This document shows positions 163 to 54,858 of a stretch of 64,000 nt of DNA, piece by piece (position 1 is the first letter of the stretch; each line of letters starts with the position of its first letter). The DNA lies in the NCBI GenBank assembly GCA_903813345.2, contig CAIIXF020000009.1:17817759-17881758 (forward strand), given 5' to 3'. The notes beneath the pieces are model-generated. The model was not told the DNA's origin and made no database searches. It saw only the letters and a program-made list of their open reading frames with translations. The DNA comes from Owenia fusiformis. Taxonomy: Eukaryota > Annelida > Polychaeta > Sabellida > Oweniidae. The position numbers and the translations under genes were made by a program.

Positions 163-2826
163 CCTGTTTAAGTTCTGTATTTTTGCAATGTTTACTCCAG
201 AAACATCTACTTCATATATCTTATTAAGGTCACTTTCTTGACTGCCCTCCAACTATAACATAATAAAGGATAGTGTTATGGGAGGTTTAACATGGGGTTT
301 ATCGGTATACATGTAATACTGTATGTTGTATTCAGACAAAGCTAGGCATGATAAATCATATTCTGGCCAACCAGAAAACAGTATAGCCAATCTATATGGT
401 ATAACAAATGAATGGCTAATAAAGGTTTTAATAGACGACATGGACCTTCTGTAAAAAACTATTACATGTAATGTTATCACAAAGTAAATTGCTTATGCAG
501 GTTAAAGCATTGACATTGACCTTGCTAAAAATACTTTCAAAACGTTTTCTGGTTGAATTTGACTCATATTAAACTCTTCTGCAATGTGTAAAAAAAGTAT
601 CGATGAATTGTGTTGTTTAAGGCATGTACTATTTTTTGTATGATTGCCTTTGTACTTTGGCTCCCTTGTTTAAAGTCCCATTCAAAAACTGTGTGCTTAA
701 AATTATCCACAAATCTTGTAGTCCTCGTGCAGGGCACAAATCCTTTTAAATCAATAAACTACAATTTGAAAATAAAATGGGTACCAACCAGACTTCATCA
801 AACCATGTGAATTCTAAGCTGAGTATTGAGCTGATCATACCATCCAGTTTGCTAATACATGAAACCCCTTGCCATACATAGCTACATGAATGATACCACT
901 AAGAAAAGTTATATACTGTATTTACTTACATTACATCATGGGATTTGGATTTTACCCATGAAGTTGGAATTCATATTTACCTGGGGCTTTAGTACAGTTT
1001 TCAACAAGAAACAAGAATATAAGTACAAGCTATACTTTACTCACCACCATTTTTAAAGTTAATTCATTTATTTTCCTAGATGGCAATCGTTCTTCTAATT
1101 CCTTCCTTCTATTGGCTGATTTTTCTCTGCCACTTGGGATATTAGTGAAAAGTACATCTTGGCCCTCCAATTCTACATCACCATTGATAATATCTGAACT
1201 TGGAGATGGGGATTGCATAGGGCTTGTGGTCCCCAGAGTAGAATTGCTAGTAGCAGACACAGTTCTGATTGCCCCGCGTTTCCCTCCAAGTGGTCCAGCC
1301 CTGAGAAAAGAAGACATTAGAATATGGTAAACAAAAGATGCACCTGTAGGCCTTTTTTAATATATCTGATATAGATGGGGAGGGGATACAGGTGCATAAA
1401 CGGCCATATCATTTTTTTCATAACATCAACGACTGAAAAACTTAAATTTGGATTTTTTTCAGATTTGCTTTACGTTCATCTTGAAAATTCTTGCACCACT
1501 GGAAAGTTACGATGTTTTTCTTCAAAATGATACTGGTTTTGTCCCGCTAAATTATATTCTTTCTATCACATTATTGTATTAAATGATGTATTGAACTTTC
1601 TGACCAACTTATTAGGGATGTCACAATTTCCTGATACTGTCCCAACTGCACTAACGAACATATCCGGAAGAAGATGAAAAACTGAAGTTCTTGTCTCATC
1701 CCGTACCAAAATATTTTTGTTCCATGACATTCCCTACTTCTTATTCCCTACGAACATTACCGAACTGAGGACTGTTGGGAGATTTCAAATTATTTTTAAC
1801 ATTTTTCAAAATAAACATGGCGGACAAAATGGCCCCATGTTCAAATAAGCCCCATGACGAAGTAACGACATACATCGAAGTTTGATGCATTTCCCCCTAT
1901 AAGCCCAGCAGATACATGGTTTCTTGAACAAACAATGTAAAGTTACTCACTTCAGGAGCCATGTTAGATTTTGAAACTTATGGCTCTCAAACGGGAAAGT
2001 GAACAGCTGATCAATAGTGACCTTTGAAATCGAATTAAGTCGATCAGCGGCTTACTTTTGGTCTCTAACTGTGTCTTACATCAGTATCATCAATCCTTGT
2101 AAGTATTGGAGCGCTGGAGTACTTCTTTTTCGATCAAGACTTGTAAATTGTTCATCGAGTGAAAGTTTTTAGACCTATTTCCAATATGGCGGTTCGCTAG
2201 GAGCGAGATACGCAACGAATGAAATGAATTTTGAGAATTAGTTAGGTTCGGACAACCTCCGGAGATTTACGAAAATGTCCGAGCAGAAAACGCCATATTG
2301 GAATTTGGCAGTAAAACGATTCACTCGACTAACAATTACAAGTCTTGATCGAAAAAGAAGTACTCCAGCGCTCCAATACTTACAAGGATTGATGATACTG
2401 ATGTAAGACACAGTTAGAGACCAAAAGTAAGCCGCTGATCGACTTAATTCGATTTCAAAGGTCACAATCAATCAGCTGTCCAAATGCTCCGTGGGAAAGC
2501 TATTATATCAAAATCCAAATAGCTTTCGCAGGAAGTAAATGTAAAGTAGTTCTGAGAGTGTAATTGAGACCATCACTCAGTGACCGAGTGCGAGACAGGA
2601 AAACTGAAAACCAAAATCATGATTGGAAGGATCAAGTCAAGGACTGAATGTCAATTTCAAATTGAATTTAGAAAATTTAATTGAAAATATTGGAAAATAA
2701 AAAAAAACGATACCCTTTCACTCTACGCCTAAGTTTAGGTCTTTCTCCAACATCCACTTCAGTGATATTTGTCCTTATGATAGGTTGGAGTGTTGGTACA
2801 CCTCTTTGTTTCAACCTTGTTCCCAT
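163..2826 (-). CDS. 5' part of an unidentified gene with a probable LRR start (partial, runs off left edge)
   Basis: Three minus-strand coding exons join in phase: 2826-2714 (starts with ATG, phase 2 end), 1300-1045 and 252-163, each with GT-AG borders. Together they give 153 residues and the frame is open at the last donor, so the gene continues beyond the window. The N-terminus is basic (KLRRR, GGKRGAIR), followed by a Ser/Thr/Pro-rich low-complexity stretch, then a charged helical segment (RRKELEERLPSRKINELTLK) and, in the third exon, IYEVDVSGVNIAKIQNL, which resembles the start of a leucine-rich repeat. I do not recognise the family; an LRR protein with a disordered N-terminal tail is inference from that last exon only. 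A foldback transposon lies in intron 1 (1301-2713). The gene is divergent from the PIDD-like gene to its right. Splice phases agree across all three exons, which makes the model credible although the product is unknown. Confidence 0.6.
1943..2538. mobile_element. hAT-type foldback MITE, copy 1, with 8-bp TSD
   Basis: A 596-bp non-coding element flanked by a perfect 8-bp direct repeat ATGTAAAG (1935-1942 and 2539-2546). Ends begin TTACT and finish AGTAA. The interior is one long imperfect palindrome: arms about 2017-2200 and 2283-2465 are reverse complements around a short centre. A near-identical copy in opposite orientation lies at 8651-9247. The 8-bp target duplication fits the hAT superfamily; no transposase is present, so it is non-autonomous. 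The open frames inside it are a by-product of the palindrome. Confidence 0.88.
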
Positions 2827-5292: not shown

Positions 5293-8200
5293 ATGCACAC
5301 ACTACGAGGGGCCTCCAATGTAGATAGGGAACTTTACGAGGCTAAGAAGTCTCGTAAAGCGGAGGTCTCGCTCCGAGGAGCAGAGTTAGAAAAGTTGCCG
5401 CTAAGTCTACTATTGCCTCCATTCACCAAGACTCTACAGAAGTTAGATCTTAGCCACAACAACCTGTTGGAGATTCCTGCAAGTCTTTGTAAGCTTCATT
5501 ATCTGAAGGTGCTCTCAATAGGTTGGAATAAATTGACAGATCTTCCACCTGAGTTAGGTTGCCTTGCCTCTTTAGAAGTCCTTGATGCAGCTCACAATGG
5601 ATTACATTATATACCAAAATGTTTATCAACACTTCTACAGTTGCAAACCATCAATTTCTCTGGGAATAAAATCTGTGAGATTGACAAGCAGCTATTACAG
5701 TTGCCAAAGTTACAAAAGCTTCATCTTACAAAAAACTATATAACAAATGTGCCAAAGGATGTTATCCTGTCAGGATTACCAAAGTTGAGACAGTATTTCC
5801 ACATTGAAATCAAGCCATCAGTAGTCTCAGTTTCTGATGACTGTGATACATCCTTTTTAAATGATCTCCAAAATTTAAGACTGACCAATCAAACCAGCAG
5901 TCATGTAATAAATGCCCCTCTTCCGCCAAGATCTAAACTTGTGACCAGTGACTATGGATCTTGTTCACTTGATCTCACATCTGACTCGTTATCTGAGGAA
6001 CCAGAAACTGGAAGTTGTTATGGGGATTATGGTAGTGACAGTGATGCTGACATTGATACGGAATCTGAACGTTCTCCACGATGTCATCATGATGACTGTT
6101 CAGATTCAGACTCTGAAGCGGAAGATTACTATGAAGAGCGAGTTTTACGGGACAGAACAAAACTCATAAAATACAAAAATGTATCAGTAGTAATTCCAGA
6201 GTATAACAAATGTGGATTTCTACAAGATGAGTTCAAAATAGATATTTTAGAGGATATATTTTATACTCCAGATACTGATGAGCGTGCTGTGCATGCAAGT
6301 CAGGTTTTATCCATAGAGCCTCATGGGTCAAGATTTTATGATACTGATCCTGCCATAATCCATATCCCTTTAGGAGTGCTTATTGATTCAGATGACCAAG
6401 TGATCTGTCTATGTAGTGACACATGTGAAGGAGACCCCCCTAATTGGCAGCCAATGTGTAACAAAGACTACAAACTAAATGATAAAAAGAATAGTGTCAA
6501 ACTACGAACCAACCATTTCAGTTTATTCACGGTAATAGCAGCTAAGCCATACCCTGAGGCTAAGAAGCATATTGATGCAAATTTGGGTGGTGTGCTGGAA
6601 GTAGATGAAGTAGAGGGGGTGCAGGTTCACTTCCCAAAAGGTGCACTCAATTCTGATATTAATGCCAGTATTAAAGTATTTTATGGGGATGAACCATTTG
6701 GCTGCGATATAGCACATGGGGATAAACCATTAGCATTAGCTACTCCTGTTGTCAGAGTTGGCCCTCATGGGTGTCAATTCAACAACAGAGCTAGCCCTGT
6801 GATAATAAAGCTCCCTATACCAGACTGCCATGCAATAATGCGAAAACTGCATGCTGAACCTACATCTGGGTTGACAATCTGGCAGAGTCAGACAGGAGAT
6901 GTAGACGACCTCCAATGGGAACAAATGAATGTGGATTACACCATAGAATGTGATAAAAATGCGAACTATTTTGTATGCATTCCTATAAGGCATTTCTCAT
7001 GGTACAAAGCATTATGGGATCTCCTTAGTTCTTCAGTACAAGAAGCGAAGATTGGAGTGTCATATTTTTACCCCTATGTACAATTCTCAATGATGTGCCA
7101 AGCATTCATGCAGGAAAATCCAGGTAGTAGCACCTTTGGTCTGGAGGTGATATGTTACCGTAGTGACAAGAAGATGCCAGAGATCGGCAACTACACATGT
7201 CGTGTAGGAGGGACAATCAAACCAAAGATGGTCAGACCAGGTAAGGTTTAATATTGGTCAATATGAATGAACTGTAAAGAGATGACATTGATCGGTGAAT
7301 ATTATTATCCCACCGAATGAAGATCATAAGGATATAGAGAAGCTGTCTTAAATTTTATTCAATTGACAGGAAGTGACGCAAACAAATTTTGAATTTAGAA
7401 TTTTTTATAAAGCACTTCGAATGATTGATATATGTGAATTTCTGATGTATTTAGCAATATTATGTTATTTCATGTCAAGATAAAGAAAGATGGAAGGAAT
7501 ATGTTTAATCGATTAAAACATCACATCGAGGTTTGGTATTCTGAAACTAGATGCTTGAAATTTGGTCAAACGAATGTGAAACAAGAGAGATATAAGATAA
7601 TTAATTATAATCATCTCTGAACTCAGGGGTTTCCTCATATATAGTGTGCAGAAAATTGATGAATTAAAACTCTCTGAGCAATGATTCAATGTTAGTTTCA
7701 TAAAAGTAAATTTCATGTCACATCATAAGTATTCATAAATATAGTTTTTTCCAAAAGGAGACAATACAACTCTACTATTTCCTGCTTATTGCAATCATGT
7801 TGTGTCCAAAATGACGTGGTATTGAATAAAATATGTTTGATTCGGTGGGATTGGATTTGCCACCGCACTCCGCAGAGTTGCTGTTTTCTAGTTCATCCAT
7901 TTTCCTTTACTGTCATTCTTTATCAGAAATAACCAAAATATTTGAAGCTGGATCTATACCGGTATCCTCTCAAGTTGTTTATGAATAGTTTGATTTCACT
8001 TCTTAAAAAGAGAGCTTCATGTACTCACTAGATGAAGAATCTTTATAGAAATCGGTAAAATCTTCTGATTCATCGCCTTACCAAATCAGTATAAGTCCAA
8101 CAAAATCAAGCTACCAGTACTTCAATTAGAATTACAGTCAATCCGCACTGGTCTCCACCTGGTTAATGCCTTCCTAACAAAATGGATCAGAGTTCAAAAT

Positions 8201-11200
8201 GGAATGATGAACTTCTGTCGGAAGCAATTTTTATTTTCATCATATTCACCATGAAGAAGGTTGATTTGTATCTAAATATTTTACTTGTATGACATTCAGT
8301 TACCAGTTACTGGAAAGCGAATCAGTCACGAGTATTAACATCCAAGGACTGCAATGATAGAGTGAGAAACCCTCCTTGGTTACGTTGTGTTAAAACGTCC
8401 AGGTTGCTGAAGTAAGGGAATTTTCACTCAGTTATTGGAGATGCCTTATAATTTGCTTATGACTGACATGTGGGTGAAATATTTGGAATTTGGATACAAA
8501 TCAACCTCTTTGTTGGTGAAAATGATGAATCTTAATAAATAAATAATAAAAAACCTGAAAATTTTTCTCTTAGACTAATGTAAGTTCATCCCTTTTGTTA
8601 TAAAGATGTAACATCTTTATATAGACCAGGTGGAAACCAGTGATCTTAGCTTACTTCCTGCGAAAGCTATTTGGATTTTGATATAATAGCTTTCCCACGG
8701 AGCATTTGTACAGCTCAATGATCGTGACCTTTGAAATCGAATTAAGTCGATCCGCGGCTTACTTTCGGTCTCTAACTGTGTCTTACATCAGTATCATCAA
8801 TCCTTGTAAGTATTGGAGCGCTACAGTACTTCTTTTTCGATCAAGACTTGTAATTGTTAGTCGAGTGAATCGTTTTACTGCCAAATTCCAATATGGCGGT
8901 TTCTGCTCGGATATTTTCGTAAATCTCCGGAGGTTGTCCGAACCTAACTAATTCTCAAAATTCATTTCGTTCGTTGCGTATCTCGCACCTAGCAAACCGC
9001 CATATTGGAAATAGGTCTAAAAAACTTTCACTCGATGAACAATTTACAAGTCTTGATCGAAAAAGAAGTACTCCAGCGCTCCAATACTTACACGGATTGA
9101 TGATACTGATGTAAGACACAGTTAGAGACCAAAAGTAAGCCGCGGATCGACTTAATTCGATTTCAAAGGTCACTATTGATCAGCTGTTCACTTCTCCGTT
9201 TGAGAGCCATAAGTTTCAAAATGTAACATGGCTCTCGAAGTGAGTAAATCTTAGCAGTATCAAAACTGTACATTTATTGTAAATGTTTCAATGTTTTAGG
9301 CCAGTTGCAGATTCGTTTAGCATCAAATGACTTTGAGGCAGACGTTTTGCATGGAGAAGATATTACTCTATCTAAAGTTGAACTGGATTTCCGCGGGCGG
9401 GAATTTGAAAAGCAATTTGCATGTAGATTCAAGGTAAGATCTTATAATATTGTTTTCAGCATTTTGATTCTTTACACTCTTTGAATAAGAGATAATTAAG
9501 TCATTAATCTAGCCTTGCCTTAGCCTAACCCAGTAGGTCAATCAACTCAGCTAATTAATATATACTAAATCTTTTGTTTTATTGACAATTTACAGTAATA
9601 CAGTACAGTAATTTAGAGGAAAAGTATTTTGATAGAATTATATCTTCTTGTTTTGTTATTGTAAATGTGAGTTGAATATGAGCACTTGTGTTTGAAAAAA
9701 AATTTGGTGTAACATGACATTTGCACAACACTAAATGAAAACAACTAACAATGTGTAATTGGAAGATTTCCAACTTTATGTCTGGTAATAGTATCTCTCA
9801 GTTCAGTGCACAGTGTAACACTGTAGTATGATACATTAGAAAATATAGTACTGTTGTAGTCAGTTGAAAGTTTGATTTGGTTCCTGATCTTTTTTACACA
9901 TAGATGATAGGTATTAGTTTTTTCTTTGAACATCTACCTCTTAGATTATCATCAGTTATTTAATTAATGCAATGAGCTTCAGGAAATGATGTTTTGTAGG
10001 TAATATTTGTGTAACCTTGAAACAAAACAACTATTTTTCATGTAGTTATTATGAATTTCTTGTTGTATTACTTTATGTTTATAAAGACCACCTAAAATAA
10101 GTACTTTATCATTTGGTGCAAAATGAGCATTGGAAGTTGGAACCCTTTGTCTAGAACCCTTCACCTTACTCTCCAACCAGAGATTTGTGAGCTTTAGAAT
10201 GTGCAAGTTTGTCATTGTACTGCTATATGAAGTAATCTGATGAACCACTTGCTGGAGATTGACCTGGTGCCTGGAGTGTGCATGCCAAGACATGCCCACT
10301 AAACACACACACTTAAACACTGTACATAAATTATGTTAATGAGCAAGCTATGAATGAGTCATTCAAGCTATAGTAAAATGGGGACCTGTCATTTTGTACA
10401 CAAAGCTTATGATGGCTTAGGGCAATAAAGGATTGAAAAGAAGTGTTTGGAATAGAGATTACAGGGTGAAAAAAGCATGCAATTCAAATAACTATGCAAA
10501 AATTGTTTTATTATAGGGTGCATCTGTTGACAAAGGAGTCTTTGGTAAAGTATTTCTCGAGCGTAAAATTGCAGCTATCTTTACACCTTTACTGGAGTTT
10601 AATCTCACGAAGGTAAGCACCCATAATAAATAAAAACATTATATTTTCAATATTCTGTTTTAATTGCACATTTTATTATTGATTTACTGAATACATCAAG
10701 TTCACCTTTCATCTTATCTTTTGCAATATTGTATAAGATCAATATCAAAATTTATGATTATGATTGTCTTAATGTTAACCTCAGTAATTGAACAACCTAA
10801 GTGCACTAACCTTACATTAAGCAACAGTAAATGACCTATAAATCTATAATTGAACAAAAAGTGCTTTAGATCTCTAGTGACTTCAATTGTTTGGCATTAA
10901 CTCATGAATTACTCAAATGATTTACTGTTTTCTTTATAAATAATGCCTATCAAACAGGTGTGTGGAATTTCATTATCGGGGCAAAAATATTTTGAGACAA
11001 ATGTTTAATTACAGTTTGGGACATTTTATCATGTTAAAGGTGGTTATACAGATACCTGGAGGTCCTGGCAAAAACCATGCCTTAACAATAATAAATAGAA
11101 TTTGGATCATAAATTTTTCAGTCTGGTGGTGAGGGGGAGATGATATTGGACAGTACAGATAGATGGAGCTTGAGTGCACTGAAGGAACTCGCAAGTAAGT

Positions 11201-13631
11201 AATGCAGGGGCTCTGCTGGGGAGTTCTTCAATGACTGTCAATATAGTTAGATTCTTGCTTTATTTAAGCGATCTTTATCGTATTCTCTCCAATAACGATA
11301 CGTATCATTATTTTAAAAATATTCTGTCACTTTCGTTGCAAATGAGGCATTTTTGGCAAGAAAAATTATCATACATGAAATTCCCGGGGATTTTTGACTT
11401 CTCTCATATATGGGTGCTCTTTGTAATGGGTTACAATGGGAATTTCAATTTTAAAAGCACCCTGGGTGCTTTTTACGGTGAATACGGTAGTCAGTATGTC
11501 CCCTTTATATAGATAAATAATTTTTGGGGAAATTATTCTGTCAGAACTTACAACTTTTATTGGCCACTAAATAATGATTCAGAGTTACAACCACTTCTGT
11601 CCAAGAGGGCATTTAAATCAAAGTGACTGCTCATATCAAAATGCCAATTTGCCTTAAAAGATTTAGGGGGATGGAGGGGACCCTTGTCACAATGCTACTG
11701 TAATATATTTTTCTGAGAACATGGTATCCATATTCTTTTATTTAAATGTTGTATTTCATATCAAAGTCTACTTTGTTTTCAGCAATGTTAGATATCACCA
11801 AAGATGATAACTGGAAACTATTTGCCAAACACCTTGGTTTTACAAACCACGAAATCCGTCACAAACTTGCATATACCAGTGATGCATTCGCAATGATCCT
11901 TGGTGCTTATCAGGCACGTGGAGGGACCCCAGAGGAATTCCTGCAGGGTCTGTATGAAGTCAGCAGGAAGATTCGTCTAAATGGTGGAAGTACTGGGGAG
12001 AATCTCGACCAGATTGGCTTTAAACAGCGCTTCAGTGATTCTGACGATAGCTTCAGTGATGGCTCTATGCCAGGTTAGTAGAAATAATAGCTAAATCTAA
12101 ATGATTATTGTGAAGTAAAATAATATTTATTCTCTTAGAAACTCACAATATTCCAACATTTTTTTCAAGATTTCATTCATATTTTTGCTGCAATTATATT
12201 ATTCGCATAAATTTTATATTTAAAAGGATTATTTTTGTAGTGTAGCTGAAGCCCTCGTACTCTCTCTCTCTCTTATAATGTTGAAATTGCAGTCAGAATG
12301 CATTCATAAGTACCTTATAAAGTATTATCAGTATAAAACTATTCAGCACTAGAATGTTATTTTGCTGGAATTTAATTAAACAGTAGCTGACATTTTAATT
12401 CAGACTGAATAAGTTGTTTTCATAATGTGAGAGGGATATATTGATATACCCGTAACTTGAACTCCTAGGTACAAGCAAAGATGAAGTAAATGATACCAGT
12501 GAAAATGATGTGTTTGTAACACCAACTCGTCCTAAACGTAAAAGGCCGGGAGGTCATGTGACAACAAGAAAACGGCAAAAAAAGACAAAATCAACTTCAA
12601 ATAAGTCTGAAATTGAGGCTTCCTTGGAGGAAGGGGAGGGGGGAGAAGTGGTTGTTAAGTTAAAATGTATGAGAGTAGTTGATTAGATAGTTAATATTTT
12701 GTTACATGTTGTTACTGTTGCTGAATACTGTTGCTTGTTTGATTTCAGATTCAATAATTTAAGATGTTAATTTCCAGGGTGAAGTTTACACTGTTACTTC
12801 AATAATTTTTTGATTTGCAGTTGACTTTACATATATACTAGGGCTGGCATGGTACAATTATTGTCTGATCCATAGTGTAAAATAGGTCCCTAATAATCCC
12901 TAATTCTGGAAGCAAGTTCCTAAATCTCTTCCGTTCCTATTTCTTTTCATTCCCTGCCAGCCCTAGTATATAAAGAATAAAACAATGATAGAAAATTGAA
13001 AAGTTAACTTTATTCATTGTTAAGTTCAAAGTATTTACTAGACCAACTAAAGACCAGAACTTATACTAGTGTCTCTCATGTTTTATGATTCAGTTTTACT
13101 TGCTGCTATGTTTGTATTGAGGTAATGTAATATGTATTTGATATGTTGTGTTGTATTTTAAACAGAAACTTAACAAATTGTGGATGGTTTCCAGGTCCAA
13201 GTGGGCTGATGTCACCCCCAAGGAAACGTGGCTCGCACTCAGGATTAGATCGTAGCCCTCCAGCGACACCTATGGGCAAACGGAAACGGAAAAACTCTGC
13301 TGGGTCTTTTACGGGATCAAGTGAAATGTCAGGTATTCATAATGAGCAAGCATGCAGGGAAAATAAACGGGACCTTGAAATCAATGCCTTATGGCATATA
13401 TCTGGCCAAGTAAACCAAAATTGGAAATCTTTGGGTCGGACGTTAAATTTACCGGAAGAGGAGCTAGCCTCTATAGAGCATTCAAATAAGGATCTGAGGG
13501 AGTGCTGTTACCAGATGTTCTTGAAATGGAAGGATCGTTGCCCCCAGCAATGTAAGGTTGGATTCATGTATAAAATCCTCTGTGATAACGGACTGAAATC
13601 AGTAGCTCAAAAACATTGTGCTCCAGATTGA
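5293..13631 (+). CDS. PIDD1: PIDD1-like protein: LRR, two ZU5 domains, UPA region, two death domains
   Basis: Six coding exons join in phase: 5293-7240, 9300-9433, 10517-10612, 11122-11194, 11783-12073, 13195-13631; total 991 residues. Residues about 30-200 are leucine-rich repeats with LDLSHNNL-type units. About 215-300 is an acidic Ser/Asp linker. Two ZU5 domains follow, each ending in an HFS motif (Ser410 and Ser569), matching the two HF/S self-cleavage sites of vertebrate PIDD1 that make the PIDD-C and PIDD-CC fragments. A UPA-like region leads to a death domain (about 740-825), a basic linker with PPRKR and KRKRK (nuclear-localisation-like), and a second death domain (about 905-990). In vertebrates PIDD1 assembles the PIDDosome with RAIDD and caspase-2 and responds to DNA damage or extra centrosomes; here function is inferred. 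The second death domain is unlike the vertebrate protein (about 910 residues, one death domain). The exact start is uncertain: Met at 5293 follows an acceptor ending at 5280 and the exon is open upstream of it. Confidence 0.85.
8146..8642. repeat. Inverted-repeat element in PIDD intron 1
   Basis: The ends are imperfect inverted copies (CACTGGTCTCCACCTGGT at 8146-8163 against ACCAGGTGGAAACCAGTG at 8625-8642), and a second inner pair around 8235-8285 and 8470-8540 is also complementary (shared GGTTGATTTGTAT). It looks like a decayed MITE. Its right end abuts the target duplication of the hAT-type MITE at 8651. Confidence 0.6.
8651..9247. mobile_element. hAT-type foldback MITE, copy 2, with 8-bp TSD
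   Basis: A 597-bp element flanked by a perfect 8-bp direct repeat ATCTTAGC (8643-8650 and 9248-9255). It is the reverse complement of the copy at 1943-2538, with only scattered mismatches by eye, and has the same internal palindrome. It sits in intron 1 of the PIDD-like gene and ends only 44 bp before the splice acceptor at 9298-9299. Confidence 0.88.
12469..12686 (+). CDS. PIDD1: Alternative terminal exon of the PIDD-like gene (basic tail, one death domain)
   Basis: An acceptor ending at 12468 opens a phase-1 exon that joins exon 11783-12073 in frame and reads 72 codons to TAG at 12684-12686. It is very basic (RPKRKRPGG, TRKRQKKTK) then acidic (EEGEGGE). Skipping it joins 12073 to 13195 equally well in frame, giving the second death domain instead. 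Using it gives a protein of about 919 residues with one death domain, close in length to vertebrate PIDD1. I see no good phase-1 donor inside it that would make it a cassette exon, so an alternative last exon is most likely. No transcript evidence is available here. Confidence 0.6.
12833..12972. repeat. Short MITE in the last PIDD intron
   Basis: About 140 bp bounded by inverted termini ATATACTAGGGCTGGCA and TGCCAGCCCTAGTATAT. No coding content. It lies between the alternative terminal exon and the final coding exon. Confidence 0.65.
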
Positions 13632-32100: not shown

Positions 32101-35100
32101 ACTACCATGCCTAGTTGATACAATCAATTAATTTACATTATTCTTTAAACTTTGTAGATCTCTAAGGCAGTGAAACAACTGAACTGCAACCACAGGGTGA
32201 TTCTCTCAGGTACTCCCATACAAAACAACGTCCTTGAACTCTGGTCATTATTTGATTTTCTTCTCCCTGGATTCCTTGGCTCGGAAAAACAATTCAATGC
32301 CCGATATGGAAAGCCGATCCTGCAGAGTCGAGATGCCAAGAGTTCATCGCGGGATCAAGAGGCAGGGGCACTGGCTATGGATGCCCTGCACCGACAGGTG
32401 TTGCCATTCTTACTAAGGAGGCTGAAAGAGGACGTGTTACAAGACCTACCACCCAAAATTATTCAGGATTATTATTGTGATCTCAGTCCACTACAGGTGC
32501 CACATATATTCTTCTTGTTACCTGTGCTTGTTTGGTATTTTTGGCTTATAACATTCATTTGAAATTGTTATATAGCAATAAGAAATATAATAAATTCAAT
32601 ATTTTCTTATAAACTCTTATTTTACAAGATGTTTTTGCCATTTTATTGATAAGTCGAAATTGTTAGAAGAAGTTCAGTACATGAATGTCTCATAACTTTC
32701 TTTATGGCTGTTTCAGGTAACCCTGTACGAGGATTTCTCAAAAAGTCGTGCCAAACAATCAGTTGATGACGGTGTTAGAGCTGGCCAGACTTCTCAGGTC
32801 AATGTTCAGACCACTACACATGTCTTTCAGGTAAATACACATGTCTTTCAAGCCACTACACATGTCTTTCAGGTTCACATGTGTTTTAAGTCATTGCTAC
32901 TATCAGGCCCGTAGCCAGGATTTGCAAAGGGGGGGTTCAGTTTTCAAAAATTTCCAGGGGGGGCAACTTTGGCCCAAATATGGCTAAATCACTTGAAAGA
33001 ATTTTTGGCCAGGGAAGTATAATTATTGGTCCTGTTAGTCTACTTAATTTGAGATTTATAACTTGTTTATGTTTTCAACCTCGCATGCAAGCTATGTGAT
33101 TGTTGATAATTATTAACCGATAAAATGGCTGCATGGTACATTATTGTATGAAATTACGAAATACCTAATCTAAATGTATACAAATTGAATATATTTCAAG
33201 CTGTATTGGAGAACTATTAACATTCCAGGCATTACAATATCTCCGTAAAGTGTGCAACCATCCTTCATTGGTATTAACCAATCAGCATCCACAATACAAG
33301 ACCATCATGCAGAATCTGCGCCAAACAGGTGTTAGTCTTAATAGCATACAACATGCAGCAAAACTGGTTGCACTCAAGTAAGTCTTACTAATTACTAGCA
33401 CTTTGCTCAATAGAATGATTTGATACTATGGTAAAATGTAAAATAGAGTGGGGAAGAGAAGAGAAAGCATGAGATAAAGGTAACAATGAAGCTATAGAAA
33501 TACTAGATGATCAGATTTTAGAGAAATGTGGAGTTGAGAAATCATGAGTTGATAGATTGTAATTGGTTGTATTTATTTTTATTAGAAATGTGTCATTCTC
33601 TAAACATGTTGCAATGGCACTGTACAGTGCAAAATGAATTGAATTTATATTCATTGACAGTACTTATTGACTTGGCATGCCCATTTTCTAAAAAGTCTTC
33701 AGAATTCTGACTTTTTTAAATATTTCGTATAATACTATATAGTATATAGGATGTCCCTTACAGTTTCGATGATTCTGGACATTTCTTTCAGAAGTCAAAA
33801 CGATCCCATTAGGAACACATTGACATGTTAATTAAAAATATTGCCCTCAGCATTTTACACTTCATCCTTTACTGCCACTTTAAAAAGACTTTTAGTGAAC
33901 AACTTATTCAATTTATTAATTGAAGGCTTTTCCCAGAAAGAACAAAATGAGTGTTAATTGAGAATGTTTGGTCTCTTTAGGCAATTGTTGTTAGACTGTG
34001 GTATAGGAGAGGGGAGTGAGGAGAGTCCAGTTGTAAACCAACACAGAGTCTTACTATTAATTTACTTATTAATTGAGAATGTTTGGTCTCTTTAGGCAAC
34101 TGTTGTTAGACTGTGGTATAGGAGAGGGGAGTGAGGAGAGTCCAGTTGTAAACCAACACAGAGTCTTACTATTTTGTCAACAGAAAACCATGCTGGATAT
34201 CATAGAGAAAGATTTATTCAAGTAAGTTATTTTAAATTCAACACACAACTCATTTTCCATCCTTATCAATCTGCATTGTATTGGAGCTACATAATATAAG
34301 GGAAATATTTCCACAAATATATTTGAACAAAATCCCCCAATGTCAAAATTGATAAATCAGTGCCTTCATTCACAGTAAGACACGAGAAAAATACACAAAA
34401 CCTGATTATAATATCTTTAATATTTGCAAAAGCAATCAGAAATCATCTCTCAGATTCTTTTTGCATGAATCTGACACAATACTCCTGTTTGTATTATCCT
34501 TGTAAAACATTATTTCAGGAGTCACATGCCCAGTGTTACATACTCAAGGCTAGATGGAACAGTGCCAGCAGGAAATAGACACTCGCTTGTCAGCAGGTTG
34601 GTTAAGTTCATCTACAGTTGTTGCTATGGTGAAAATGGACCGTTTTAATTGCAATATAAGGGAGCATGATAGATAAAATGGTGATTAAAATCATCATATT
34701 TTGATGGCCACTTCTCTAAATGGATACAGTATTCCTTAAAAATCTCTCTTGATATGATAGCTATAACCATATTATACTATCTGTATTCAGTAAATGTGAA
34801 GAAATGTTTTGATATAATTTCAAAATGGGTCATTTAAAAATGCAGTGCTCATTTCATACAGTTCTGAAAAAAGGAATTATAGTTTGAAAAGGAAAGCATT
34901 TGAGGTAAGAATTTCTGATTGGACATTACATTAATCAATTGATAAACTGCATTGTTATTTATTTGTCTTTTTGGTTTATGTGGGTTTCTTACGGAGTAGT
35001 TTTTATTGTTACACATTTTTGTTTATTTTTTCTAATTAGCTAAAAATAGAATAATACATCTGATCAATACCATAGTGATTACTTTGGTTGCTTACCTTCA

Positions 35101-37064
35101 TGTACCACTAACAATAACTATCTTACCATTTCTTGATCTCACCTTAGTTGGGGGATAATTCATGGGTGGTAAATGGGGGAGGGATGGCAGGCGAGATTCA
35201 CTCAGATAACAACCTGCTTTCTCCTTGTATTAAGAAATGAATGGAAAATGGCGTTCTTCTGCGCATGTGCGTTGACCTACATTCAACTCTACTTCCTGAC
35301 AATCGTAACAACAATCAAATACTCCCATAAAACACACATAAAACCAATTAATTTTCAATTAATTGACATTTTTGTTCGAAGGTTCAACAATGATCCGTCC
35401 ATAGATGTGCTTCTATTGACAACCCATGTAGGTGGCCTTGGCTTGAACCTGACTGGAGCTGATACTGTCATATTTGTAGAACATGATTGGAACCCAATGA
35501 AGGACCTTCAAGTAAGCTTTAGTAACATACATGTCATTAGGTTTCAGTCAACTTTGTCAATGAAACTGTCTTCTGTCCAAAAAGGACTTGTTTTATCTCC
35601 AAAGCAAAAAATGACATTCATAACTAACAGTAGTGTAGTTATTGCTATTTTTCTGACAGCCATTTTGAATTTTCCACATTTGAAAACCTCTTTCAGTGTA
35701 GGACCAAATGCCCCATCATGTTTTCATTTGAAACCTTATGAATTATCAGAAGATTTCTATGACCAATTTCTGCTTTCTGAATGTTTGCATTGACCCATGT
35801 GTTACCGTGTGCATTTTCACTGATAGTCTTAAATACAATGTTTCATACTTGTATATTTAGTGGTCTATCACAGACGTCAAGTAAGTTTCTGGCGAAAGCC
35901 GGAGCATAGATTATTTAAGAGGACTGGAAACAAGAATGACCTACCTTTTTATTTCCCGAATCTCGCCTGAAATTAGCTCATCTTGGTGACTGTAACCTGT
36001 ATATCTGTATTAATACAGTCTCTTTGTATCGCATCTGCCTCAATTTTAAAGTTTTATTGGTATTTTTAATATAATTTCACTGTTTTTGTGGACTGGACGA
36101 TTCAGCCAAGCAAATGACAGCTGACCTGTTCAAAGTACTTTCAGTATTAATTATCGCAAATGACAATAATTTTGGAAACAATATTATACTTATAGATTAC
36201 TAAGCATCTAAGGTAAGTAAAACTTGATGAACAACTGAGTCAATAGTGATAAATAGGCCAACACGAGTTGGCAGATTTGAAATAGACTGCCATCTTGTTT
36301 CCAGTCCTCTTTATAATCTATGCTCCAGCTTTCGCCAGAAACTTACTCGATGTCTGTGTCTGCTATGGTACTAAAATGTCAGAATCATAATGACTTCATG
36401 TTCAGATACGTTTTTTGTTGAATAATAATATCAAAGCCAAACTTTTTCTCTCAACAAAACCCATATTTAATTATTGAACTTTAATGATTATTAATGTGTA
36501 TTGTAGGCAATGGACCGCGCCCATCGTATTGGACAGAAAAAAGTGGTTAATGTGTATCGCCTCATCACTCGTGGTACTTTGGAGGAGAAAATCATGGGGT
36601 AAGATGCTATAAATCACCACATAAATCTGTATAACCAGTTGACTCTTTTTAAACTTTGGATGTAAAGAGATGTGATCTTAGGGGTTTGATAATAAATGGG
36701 CCATGAAAACATGGTATATTATTCACAAAGCATTTAATTCTGCACATCTGGCCCTATTCATTGTGTGGTATAATGCACGGCTGAATTATTTTCCAGGTTG
36801 CAGAAGTTCAAACTGAATATTGCAAATACTGTGATCAGTCAAGAGAACTCAAGTCTACAAACTATGGGAACAGACCAGTTGTTAGACCTCTTCTCATTGG
36901 ACAATAAGACCAAAGGAAGCACCCTTGGCCAAAAATCTGACGAATCAAAATCTGTGAAACAGGAATCAATGGCTAAAATGTTGGACAATTTAGGTGAACT
37001 TTGGGATGAAAAGCAATATGACAATGAATATGATCTGAGCAGTTTCATGAAATCTTTGTCATAA
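17196..37064 (+). CDS. BTAF1: TATA-binding protein-associated factor BTAF1 (TAF172/Mot1), complete
   Basis: Mot1-family Snf2 ATPase that uses ATP to strip TBP from DNA in the nucleus. 38 coding exons join in phase to 1811 residues (human protein about 1849): 17196-17206, 19351-19474, 20290-20404, 20585-20725, 20907-21067, 21254-21393, 21696-21831, 22232-22390, 22554-22728, 22992-23089, 23244-23384, 23534-23658, 23928-24147, 24679-24828, 25028-25173, 25466-25637, 26155-26324, 26667-26834, 26932-27049, 27327-27539, 27838-27924, 28171-28303, 28708-28808, 28939-29140, 29448-29596, 29971-30123, 30297-30434, 30657-30808, 31279-31356, 31792-31855, 32158-32496, 32717-32830, 33229-33377, 34096-34221, 34519-34596, 35382-35511, 36507-36598, 36797-37064. 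Exon 1 encodes only MAT plus two bases and was fixed by phase. Residues 1-1180 are HEAT-repeat-like TBP-binding solenoid; the ATPase follows. The conserved C-terminal segment ([19 protein letters not shown]) is present. No frameshift or missing motif. Confidence 0.95.
17717..17787 (-). repeat. tRNA-derived SINE head in BTAF1 intron 1
   Basis: On the minus strand an A-box-like TAACTCAGCTGG (17763-17775 region) is followed at tRNA spacing by a B-box-like GAGTTCGAGACC (17725-17736). The arms do not pair well enough for a working tRNA, and AT-rich, TTATT-rich sequence follows, so a SINE head is more likely than a tRNA gene. Confidence 0.5.
19009..19330 (+). repeat. Dispersed repeat, longer copy, ending 20 bp before a BTAF1 acceptor
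   Basis: The outer parts (TTATCCTATGCC, GATATATCCCGTATCCTGAT, CCTCCCAGTACATAACCCTT) recur in reverse orientation at 48921-49045, where about 200 bp of the middle is missing. The repeat ends near 19330 and the exon 2 acceptor of BTAF1 is at 19349-19350. Family unknown. Confidence 0.6.
21502..21680. repeat. Degenerate minisatellite, about 26-30 bp unit, BTAF1 intron 6
   Basis: About six imperfect copies of a unit with core GCCACACATGTTTTAATCCA. Wholly intronic (intron 21394-21695) and ending 15 bp before the exon 7 acceptor. Confidence 0.7.
24364..24440. repeat. Short mariner-like MITE in BTAF1 intron 13
   Basis: 77 bp with inverted ends CAGGGTGTCCATGAAGTC and GACTTTATGGAAACCCTATA. Size and termini suggest a Tc1/mariner-derived MITE; no coding sequence. 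Confidence 0.55.
29752..29921. repeat. 48-bp minisatellite in BTAF1 intron 25
   Basis: Three and a half nearly perfect 48-bp units (core AGAGAACATGTCATTGAG), each built from three related 16-bp subunits around GAGAACATGT. Because 48 is a multiple of three it is open in one frame, but it lies between exon 25 (ends 29596) and exon 26 (starts 29971) and is not part of the protein. Confidence 0.85.
29971..37064 (+). CDS. BTAF1: BTAF1 Snf2 ATPase half (exons 26-38)
   Basis: Catalytic half, listed separately for its landmarks. Walker A is DMGLGKT with Lys1262 (exon 30297-30434). Walker B is DEGH at 1369-1372 (exon 31792-31855). Motif III is LSGTPIQNN at the start of exon 32158-32496. The C-terminal RecA lobe carries [15 protein letters not shown] (exon 35382-35511) and motif [10 protein letters not shown] near 1695-1702 (exon 36507-36598). 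All catalytic residues look intact, so an active enzyme is expected. The segment before motif IV (exon 34) was hit by a partial duplication, see 33954-34173. Confidence 0.95.
32810..32872 (+). repeat. Short tandem repeat straddling the exon 32 donor of BTAF1
   Basis: The last bases of exon 32 (ACACATGTCTTTCAG) are repeated twice just inside the intron. The next perfect copy, ending at 32872, is again followed by GT. Using it would add exactly 42 bases (14 codons, reading [14 protein letters not shown]) in frame. Both donors are plausible by sequence. Confidence 0.7.
32905..32985. repeat. G-rich dispersed repeat end in BTAF1 intron 32
   Basis: GGCCCGTAGCCAGGATTT followed by G-runs and GGGGGGCAACTTTGGCCC. 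This style of terminus is common in invertebrate non-autonomous DNA transposons; a similar G-run element lies at 63149-63347. Only one end is clear. Confidence 0.4.
33954..34173 (+). repeat. 115-bp tandem duplication containing the start of BTAF1 exon 34
   Basis: Bases 33954-34058 and 34069-34173 are identical except for one mismatch by eye (GCAATTG against GCAACTG), separated by a 10-bp filler. Each copy carries the intron end and first 78 bases of exon 34. Only the downstream copy continues into the rest of the exon. Splicing to the upstream acceptor (33980) would read in frame to TAG at 34093-34095, so the upstream copy is a dead pseudo-exon. Confidence 0.9.
35869..36358. mobile_element. 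MITE with long terminal inverted repeats in BTAF1 intron 36
   Basis: 490 bp. Arms at about 35869-35930 and 36295-36358 are reverse complements (AGTAAGTTTCTGGCGAAAGC and its complement), with outer ends CACAGAC and GTCTGTG. No coding content; no clean target duplication recognised. Confidence 0.75.
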
Positions 37065-53500: not shown

Positions 53501-54703
53501 TAGTTTCCTCTTTGAGGCCAGAGATATCAAATGGTTACTTAAACATGTACATGTATGTACATTTCCATATTAAAGCTTTGAAATTAAGCCATACTTTTTA
53601 GATAACAACTGCATTTAGGCTGATACATATACATTCATAATTCCTGTATAACAGATGACCTTAACCTGCCATAAGCTTCATTATGTGAGGTTATGTGAGG
53701 TCATAAGGACTAAGTATAAGTCCCATACTTTTTTTATTGAAAGGTAATGCTAGACTGACTATATAATAAATGTGACTTCATAAATTGTATGGCCTTATCT
53801 CACCATAGTATCTACTTTCATGATCACAGATACCTCCTCAAACAGTGTTATGTGATTTTAAGAAGAGGAGTACATGAATACAGATGTATGTCATGTATTA
53901 CATCTGCCAAGAGAGTCAAATGTAAAGAGACTGAAGACCCAAATACTGAATTGGACAAAAAGGTGACAGCAGCTTCAAATTGCCACAAGTAGATTCATTG
54001 CAATATTATAATGTGATATCAAAATCAGTTAATTACCAGTCTAAGGTGAAATAATAGAGTTAAATGTCATTAGGTAAAATAAAATCAGGTGATCCGCATT
54101 CAATCATCTTTGTTATTTAAGTTAATAATGATAGAAGTATAAATGAGATTTTATTCTTTCGGCAAAATTATATATAAACCAAACATTCAGTTCTTATGAT
54201 TTTTAAGAACCTACCGGTGGAGTAGTGCTTCCAATGCCTACTGAGGTCTGTGCAAATCTCTCTTTGGCCTTCAACGCCTTTGTCCTTTCATTCCGCAACC
54301 GTTCATCATCTTTTAATAAATTCACCAACATTTTAGCCTTCTCTCTCACATTAATCCCTTGATCCTTGTTTTCTTCAACATATTGAAAATCTTTTAGAGT
54401 TTGTACAGCAAATATATTTTCCTTACACTGTTGGGCAACTTTTTCACTACCCGTTTTTATTATATACTCCAATAACATTAGTGATTTATAAACATGCCTC
54501 CAATTTTTTCCATGATCGTTAAGTCTCTTCCAGATCATTTGCATGATCTCAGTAAATGCCACTACATTGTAAGTCAAGTCCGCAATTTCGGACATAAGTG
54601 TACTTGAAGGTCCCCAAGGATCATTGCTAGTTGCTTCTCGGACTTTAACCTGGGCGTCCGAGTAATTGTTAACGACATTTTTTATTGTTCTTCTCATTGG
54701 CAT
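47567..54703 (-). CDS. EPN: Epsin (ENTH-domain endocytic adaptor), complete
   Basis: Clathrin adaptor that binds PtdIns(4,5)P2, ubiquitinated cargo, AP-2, clathrin and EH proteins at the plasma membrane. Eight minus-strand coding exons join in phase: 54703-54215, 52713-52644, 52174-52100, 51803-51667, 50676-50367, 50115-49864, 48350-48219, 47793-47567; 563 residues against about 576 for human epsin-1. Residues about 10-140 are an ENTH domain (VREATSNDPWGP, NDHGKNWRHVYK, CKENIFAVQTLKDFQYV). Two ubiquitin-interacting motifs lie at about 213-232 (EEELQLQLALAMS) and 238-257 (LQMAIEES). Then come DPW/DPF motifs for AP-2 (SDPWG, ADPWG, ADPWA, VDPFS, VDPFA, GDPFA), a clathrin-box-like LVNLD within the epsin hallmark SPEGFLGPNANLVNLDNL, and three NPF motifs for EH domains, the last almost at the C-terminus (NNPFL). 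The start is fixed by homology and by an acceptor at 54736-54737. It cannot be assigned to one vertebrate paralogue. Confidence 0.95.
48921..49045 (-). repeat. Dispersed repeat, short copy, epsin intron 6
   Basis: Reverse-complement match to the two outer parts of the repeat at 19009-19330, lacking its central 200 bp. Intronic. Confidence 0.6.
49610..49855. repeat. Degenerate tandem repeat next to an epsin exon
   Basis: Imperfect units of roughly 19-23 bp with core CCCACATTATATCTGCCT, running to within 10 bp of the exon 49864-50115 donor side. Confidence 0.55.
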
Positions 54704-54858
54704 GCTGTCAGTTGATGCTTAAAACATCCTCCAACCTAAAAATACATGACGGGTAAATGAAGTTAATAAAATAAAAAACAAGAATAGCTTTATACAGTTT
54801 GATTAAATACAGATTAAAAATCATCATACATCAGCAGCAAGATGAAATTTGCTCTACC

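What the first reader, a model, noticed from the sequence alone, without database searches (positions are those of the whole stretch)
11122..13631. PIDD-like protein with two death domains separated by a nuclear-localisation-like linker
Vertebrate PIDD1 carries a single C-terminal death domain. Here a death domain at residues about 740-825 is followed by a basic linker (PPRKR, KRKRK) and a second, clearly separate death-domain fold (core NWKSLGRTLNLPEEEL, about 905-990). Two death domains in one scaffold could recruit two adaptors or change PIDDosome stoichiometry. Both exons join in phase with good splice sites.
Basis: partly seen in the sequence, partly recalled or inferred. Interest (0 to 1): 0.75.

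Follow-up and report, generated by a model that had tools for sequence, protein, structure and literature searches.

The report
Invertebrate PIDD1-like protein, two death domains
An invertebrate gene resembling the human stress-response scaffold PIDD1 appears to encode two different death domains instead of one, and the second is the closest relative found in this genome of the death domain of a caspase-linking adaptor, so the scaffold may work through that second domain while the first does something else.

Summary
A plus-strand gene model (ATG 5293, stop 13631; joins in phase) encodes LRRs, two ZU5 stretches, two HFS self-cleavage motifs and two Pfam death domains (DDs), each above the cut-off when scanned alone (25.3 and 44.5 bits; cut-off 22.6). 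No transcripts were available, so that both DDs sit in one mRNA is inferred.

The interpretation shifts. First, by class the odd domain is DD1, not DD2: on profiles of nine DDs drawn 20 times from the genome's larger DD group, human PIDD1's DD scores 42-63 bits, DD2 35-66, DD1 3-14. That group is broad, and human PIDD1 as query did not list DD2 among its best nine. Second, DD2's reciprocal best match is the DD of the only CARD-DD gene found; that CARD's best solved relative is RAIDD. So DD2 is probably the adaptor-facing domain.

A possible 198-nt exon (12469-12666) was missed: an in-phase cassette, or a last exon leaving DD1 only.

Best reading: a new architectural variant of PIDD1, DD2 as effector, DD1 regulatory or docking another partner. 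Function is inferred.

The parts
5293..7240 (+). Exon 1 as modelled (an upstream exon is not excluded): LRRs from aa ~47, acidic linker, ZU5-1, ZU5-2, HFS motifs at aa 408-410 and 567-569
   Evidence: LRR_8 51.6 bits, ZU5 40.9 bits with 2 stretches
9300..9433 (+). Exon 2, UPA-position region
   Evidence: in-phase GT-AG joins; codon score reached by 0.058 of 500 intron windows
10517..10612 (+). Exon 3, UPA-position region
   Evidence: in-phase GT-AG joins; codon score reached by 0.100 of 500 intron windows
11122..11194 (+). Exon 4, start of DD1 (helix 1 region)
11783..12073 (+). Exon 5, most of DD1 (Pfam Death about aa 747-817 across exons 4-5)
   Evidence: 25.3 bits; model pLDDT 77.4 (its first residues are intron, not exon 4)
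12469..12686 (+). Possible exon 6: in-phase 198-nt cassette 12469-12666 (donor GTATGA), or alternative last exon with stop 12684-12686 and AATAAA at 12976; encodes basic PKRKRP and RKRQKK motifs
   Evidence: codon score reached by 0.010 of 500 intron windows; weak splice sites
13195..13631 (+). Last exon: basic linker (PPRKR, KRKRK), DD2 (Pfam Death aa 917-987), stop
   Evidence: (44.5 bits)

Best explanation
The locus is a PIDD1-type scaffold gene, the only one found in this genome, in an architecture that carries two death domains of different kinds. Shown by sequence: LRRs, ZU5 stretches, two HFS motifs, DD1, a basic linker, DD2. Inferred: as in human PIDD1 the protein cuts itself at the HF|S sites (before S410 and S569), releasing a C-terminal fragment (UPA-position region, DD1, linker, DD2). 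DD2 is the effector death domain: it falls in the same broad class as the human PIDD1 DD and docks the CARD-DD adaptor (RAIDD-like, C9:20.65 Mb), which in turn recruits a CARD-caspase. DD1, divergent and outside that class, directly behind the UPA position as in UNC5, is more likely a regulatory DD (packing on the ZU5-UPA module) or a docking site for another partner than a second copy of the adaptor site. The basic linker probably serves nuclear import; a possible alternative exon could vary it or drop DD2.
For: Both DDs pass the Pfam cut-off alone. HFS at aa 408 and 567 match the HF/S sites described after each ZU5 of PIDD (PMC3210808, passages; S446 and S588, PMC11637483, passages). DD2 and human PIDD DD score 69.6 and 62.5 bits on the profile of 57 genome DDs, DD1 12.3; the gap holds over 20 of 20 random nine-member profiles. 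DD2 and the L001 DD are reciprocal best matches (47.8 bits, next 29.9; back 46.2 bits, next 36.7), 40% identical over 65 aa, sisters in the tree at 85/88, not starred. L001 carries a CARD (44.2 bits) whose best solved relative is RAIDD (3crd, E=4e-5); it is the only CARD within 15 kb of a DD among 67 DD and 38 CARD matches. A partial CARD match (28.4 bits) starts 788 bases from a caspase-domain match at C1:37.747 Mb.
Against: No RNA: DD2 could belong to another transcript; its acceptor is mediocre. Human PIDD DD as query does not list DD2 among its best nine of 73 DDs, and human RAIDD DD lists neither DD2 nor L001 among its best nine. In solved structures DD2's best matches are TNFR1 and RIPK1 (E about 0.009), PIDD only at E=0.14 and 0.24. 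UPA is not detected by sequence. Human PIDD1 R815 (its change affects CRADD binding) and R862 (disease variant) align with E and L in DD2 (PMC8385073 passages). DD2's likeness to the adaptor DD is kinship, not proof of binding. DD1's leaning to the p75/UNC5/MyD88 side falls from 22.5 to 10.5 bits without one member, and the comparison with the genome's UNC5-like protein is below its shuffles. Tree tests reject none of the alternatives (p 0.275, 0.322, 0.265).
Confidence: 0.45

Rival explanations
1. DD1 is the orthologue of the vertebrate PIDD1 DD, much diverged, and DD2 is a later gain (a copy of a RAIDD-type adaptor DD captured by the gene). The scaffold then carries its own adaptor-like DD.
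For: DD1 sits near the human DD position (about 170-180 aa after the second HFS; human about 200, DD start recalled). DD2's nearest relative is the same genome's CARD-DD gene, closer than human PIDD DD (28.1 bits pairwise), and human PIDD DD does not list DD2 among its best nine. The tree test does not reject DD1 + human PIDD DD (p 0.322).
Against: Class profiles place human PIDD DD with DD2, not DD1; DD1 and human PIDD DD share only a 17-residue match of 18.5 bits; DD2 and the adaptor DD are only 40% identical over 65 aa, so no recent copy.
Confidence: 0.25
2. DD1 and DD2 arose by internal tandem duplication of one PIDD DD.
For: Both lie in one gene model; the tree test does not reject DD1+DD2 as sisters (p 0.275); neighbouring, sister DD exons exist elsewhere in the genome (C6:15.59 Mb, 1.3 kb apart; 99/98).
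Against: The pairwise match of DD1 and DD2 is 12 residues, E=1.1; different class profiles; DD1 is split by an intron, DD2 lies in one exon.
Confidence: 0.1
3. Two transcripts, not one two-DD protein: exon 12469-12686 is the usual last exon (DD1 plus basic tail, AATAAA at 12976), and DD2 is made only in a minor form or by a separate gene.
For: Open frame with stop at 12684-12686, coding-like codon use, AATAAA at 12976, mediocre acceptor of DD2's exon.
Against: The exon 6 acceptor is weaker still (96 of 430 AGs score as high); DD2's exon is in phase with exon 5 and with exon 6; an AATAAA within 300 bases is expected about once in three such stretches (my estimate from base composition, no call). 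Promoters were not examined.
Confidence: 0.15

Closest known systems
[quoted passage not shown]
   Same: N-terminal LRRs, tandem ZU5, HF|S motif after each ZU5, C-terminal death domain in the same broad DD class as DD2
   Different: One C-terminal death domain in human PIDD1 (PMC11637483 and PMC8385073, passages); here a second, different DD lies between the UPA-position region and the C-terminal DD, with a basic linker
CRADD/RAIDD (CARD-DD adaptor)
   Same: DD2 and the DD of the genome's CARD-DD gene are reciprocal best matches
   Different: No CARD matched in the PIDD-like protein; human RAIDD DD itself does not list DD2 among its best nine
UNC5 / ankyrin ZU5-UPA-DD proteins
   Same: A DD directly behind the ZU5-UPA position (domain order of UNC5 as in PMC3210808, passages); ZU5-2 matches ankyrin-3 in solved structures (E=0.00056)
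   Different: UPA not detected by sequence; no significant match of the UPA-position region plus DD1 to the genome's UNC5-like protein

Membership tests
PIDD1 | N-terminal leucine-rich repeats | tested here: met
   LRR_8 51.6 bits, cut-off 27
PIDD1 | two ZU5 domains | tested here: met
   ZU5 40.9 bits, 2 stretches in the whole protein at E<=1; alone ZU5-2 26.1 bits, ZU5-1 19.5 bits, just under the cut-off 21
PIDD1 | HF|S autoproteolysis motif after each ZU5 | tested here: met
   HFS at aa 408-410 and 567-569; motif only, cleavage not testable; site description from PMC3210808 (passages)
PIDD1 | UPA domain | tested here: inconclusive
   no UPA family listed at E<=1 or E<=10; no match to the genome's UNC5-like protein above shuffles; present only by position
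PIDD1 | C-terminal death domain of human PIDD type | tested here: met
   DD2: Pfam 44.5 bits; same broad class profile as human PIDD DD, pairwise 25% over 77 aa, 28.1 bits; the class is broad and human PIDD DD's best nine do not include DD2
PIDD1 | a single death domain | tested here: not met
   two Pfam Death stretches; a departure in architecture, other tested features are kept; hence filed as a variant
PIDD1 | binding to RAIDD and caspase-2 activation | not testable with these tools
   a CARD-DD gene and a CARD-caspase candidate exist in the genome; R815 and R862 are not conserved in DD2
CRADD/RAIDD (locus L001, outside the window) | CARD followed by DD, with RAIDD-like CARD | tested here: met
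   CARD 44.2 bits, Death 58 bits; best solved relative of the CARD is RAIDD 3crd, E=4e-5, next Apaf-1 E=0.0043; its DD is not among human RAIDD DD's best nine
p75/UNC5/MyD88 side of the DD tree (for DD1) | DD scores on that profile and not on the other | tested here: inconclusive
   22.5 vs 12.3 bits, but 10.5 without locus L005

The most novel reading that the evidence does not exclude
The scaffold has an adaptor-type death domain (DD2, kin of the CARD-DD adaptor) joined by a basic, splice-variable linker to a different DD (DD1). DD1 and DD2 could form the PIDD-RAIDD type layer inside one chain or between chains, so that the scaffold seeds its own adaptor filament, and the choice of last exon would switch between a seeding (DD1+DD2) and a capped (DD1 only) form.
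Probability: 0.15. Interest if true: 0.7.

Novelty: new variant of a known kind. Interest (0 to 1): 0.42.

Why it matters
In the papers I saw, the PIDDosome is described for human cells, with one PIDD1 death domain binding RAIDD. A scaffold in which an adaptor-type DD and a different DD are separate would let the two roles of PIDD1 (adaptor recruitment, and regulation or other signalling) be tested apart, and would bear on whether the vertebrate protein lost a domain. It also gives an invertebrate genome with PIDD-like, CARD-DD and candidate CARD-caspase genes together.

Tried and rejected
Structure prediction of DD2 from a single sequence was of low confidence (mean pLDDT 43.8), so I did not search folds with it. 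The DD1 model (pLDDT 77.4) gave no fold match at E<=0.001; of 39 matches at E<=10 the first is the RIPK1 DD at E=0.87, with DR3, ankyrin-B, FADD, p75 and Pelle/Tube DDs among the rest: agreeable, not evidence on its own. DD1 had no DD match by phmmer in solved structures (one chance match, E=1.2). DD1 was not among the 67 genome matches of Death at E<=0.001. No relative in viral contigs (4 pattern matches, none confirmed). NCBIfam listed no PIDD or death-domain family, only matches far below their cut-offs, mostly bacterial LRR proteins. A tree of 73 DDs on 97 columns could not decide the origin of DD1 or DD2. I rejected a chance open frame for DD2 (44.5 Pfam bits; 166-codon frame). A second PIDD paralogue was not found (46 of 261 candidates scored). 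No two-death-domain PIDD appeared in the listings, nor in the passages I read of five of the listed or cited papers; the library is open-licence only. The odds of the best explanation were lowered from 0.5 to 0.45 when I rechecked and the make-up of the profile sets.

Full report
What is there. On the plus strand a gene model runs from ATG 5293 to a stop at 13631 with exons 5293-7240, 9300-9433, 10517-10612, 11122-11194, 11783-12073 and 13195-13631; every join has GT-AG borders and keeps the frame, giving 992 aa. Pfam finds LRRs, ZU5 in two stretches and Death in two stretches. Scanned alone, DD1 (exons 11122-11194 and 11783-12073) scores 25.3 bits and DD2 (exon 13195-13631) 44.5 bits, both above the curated 22.6. 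HFS motifs lie at aa 408-410 and 567-569, as described after each ZU5 of PIDD (PMC3210808, passages read; S446 and S588 in human, PMC11637483, passages read). A UPA domain is expected behind the second HFS but none of my searches detects it. The protein is therefore PIDD1-like with one added death domain.

The gene model. No transcripts were available. The 12073 donor is good (7 of 452 GTs between 7260 and 15000 score as high, itself included); the 13195 acceptor is middling (61 of 430 AGs); the matrices are recalled human-like frequencies and serve for ranking only. Codon scores trained on exon 1 put exons 5 and 7 above all 500 intron windows drawn, exon 4 above 99.6% and the possible exon 6 above 99%; exons 2 and 3 are weaker (0.058 and 0.100 of windows reach them). 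The possible exon 6 (12469-12666, 198 nt) keeps the frame between exons 5 and 7 and would add PKRKRP and RKRQKK motifs; read to its stop at 12684-12686, with AATAAA at 12976, it would instead end the protein after DD1. Its splice sites are weak (acceptor 96 of 430, donor 27 of 452).

The genome. The window lies in G000:C9:17817759-17881758; G000 has 498,259,871 bases in 525 contigs. Contigs C1-C12 are 31.9-62.2 Mb long. Owenia fusiformis has a 505.8-Mb assembly with 12 chromosome-scale scaffolds (PMC9977687, passages read); the likeness is suggestive, the species is not verified. One PIDD-like locus was found; the matches of the whole protein outside the window cover the LRR part, apart from one DD (44 matches, 46 of 261 candidates scored). 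ZU5 has 10 matches, of which I looked only at the window and one UNC5-like place.

Which death domain is which. Death gives 67 matches in G000 at E<=0.001, DD2 among them, DD1 not. I translated the other 66. DD2's best match is at C9:20654463 (47.8 bits; next 29.9), and it is reciprocal (46.2 bits; next human RIPK1 36.7). That gene has an upstream CARD exon (44.2 bits) and a DD (58 bits); the CARD's best solved relative is RAIDD (3crd, E=4e-5; next Apaf-1 E=0.0043). Among 67 DD and 38 CARD matches this is the only pair within 15 kb (adaptors with longer introns would be missed). Against this: human RAIDD DD as query lists neither L001 nor DD2 among its best nine, and human PIDD DD does not list DD2 among its best nine; in solved structures DD2's best matches are TNFR1 and RIPK1 at E about 0.009, with PIDD at E=0.14 and 0.24.

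In a tree of 73 DDs DD2 and the L001 DD are sisters at 85/88, not starred; DD1 has the second longest end branch (2.54) and falls with L005 and L061 (90/73, open) inside a 12-row side (76/94, weak) that also holds L017 and L049, which lie 1.5 and 3 kb from ZU5 matches and so look like UNC5, and four C2 DDs. L005 resembles p75/NRADD; one of the C2 DDs, the only one tested, resembles MyD88. Human PIDD, RAIDD, RIPK1, TNFR1 and ankyrin-1 DDs fall on the other side.

I then built two profiles: nine DDs of the 12-row side (chosen after seeing the tree; DD1, L011 and L061 not included) and the 57 others (L011 and L061 among them). Scores: DD1 22.5 and 12.3 bits; DD2 8.7 and 69.6; human PIDD DD 17.0 and 62.5; the best of 300 shuffles reaches 5.1 and 4.3 for DD1, 7.5 and 9.0 for DD2, 3.1 and 7.5 for human PIDD. 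With 20 random nine-member subsets of the 57, DD1 scores 3.3-13.8, DD2 34.7-66.0, human PIDD DD 42.1-63.4. So DD2 and human PIDD DD share a broad class and DD1 stands outside it. DD1's own class is unsure: without L005 its score on the small profile falls to 10.5, below human PIDD's 12.1. Tests of forced clades reject nothing (DD1+DD2 p 0.275; DD1+human PIDD 0.322; DD2+human PIDD 0.265).

How it may work (inferred). By analogy with human PIDD1, self-cleavage at the HF|S sites frees a C-terminal fragment; in human cells the fragment after the second site is reported as required for RAIDD/caspase-2 activation (PMC11637483, passages). Here DD2 is the best candidate to dock the CARD-DD adaptor, and a CARD-caspase candidate exists (a partial CARD match of 28.4 bits starts 788 bases from a caspase-domain match at C1:37.747 Mb). 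DD1, directly behind the UPA position as in UNC5, would be regulatory or bind another partner. Against a conserved interface: human R815 and R862 align with E and L in DD2 (numbering inferred from R815, R862 and Q863 falling on matching letters; variants from PMC8385073, passages).

What is known. PIDD homologues are reported in the clams Mya arenaria and Ruditapes philippinarum, and a RAIDD homologue in a mussel (PMC7836458, passages), so an invertebrate PIDD is not new in itself; their domain make-up was not given in those passages. I found no two-DD PIDD in the listings, but that library is open-licence only and unpublished database entries may well show it.

Verdict. Two genuine death domains in a PIDD1-like gene: very likely. 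Same mRNA: likely, unproven. The extra domain is DD1 rather than DD2: supported by class profiles, opposed by position and by the pairwise rankings, not settled by the tree. New variant of a known kind.

Noticed in passing
window 2000-2482 and 8707-9190: Two palindromic (MITE-like) elements of like sequence, 147-nt arms 97% and 93% complementary; the second lies in intron 1 of the PIDD-like gene.
   Followed up: partly
window 32158-32562 and 35173-35793 (+): Open frames that look like a SNF2-type ATPase, by recalled likeness BTAF1/MOT1; no family search was run on them.
   Followed up: no
window 54203-54718 (-): Open frame that looks like an ENTH domain of an epsin (recalled likeness).
   Followed up: no
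G000:C2:28347787-28474646: Four closely similar death-domain exons in about 127 kb; the one tested resembles MyD88.
   Followed up: partly
L001 (G000:C9:20649500-20659400): RAIDD-like CARD-DD gene, 2.8 Mb from the PIDD-like gene on the same contig.
   Followed up: yes
G000:C6:15593730 and 15595061: Two death-domain exons 1.3 kb apart, sisters in the tree (99/98): another possible two-DD gene.
   Followed up: no
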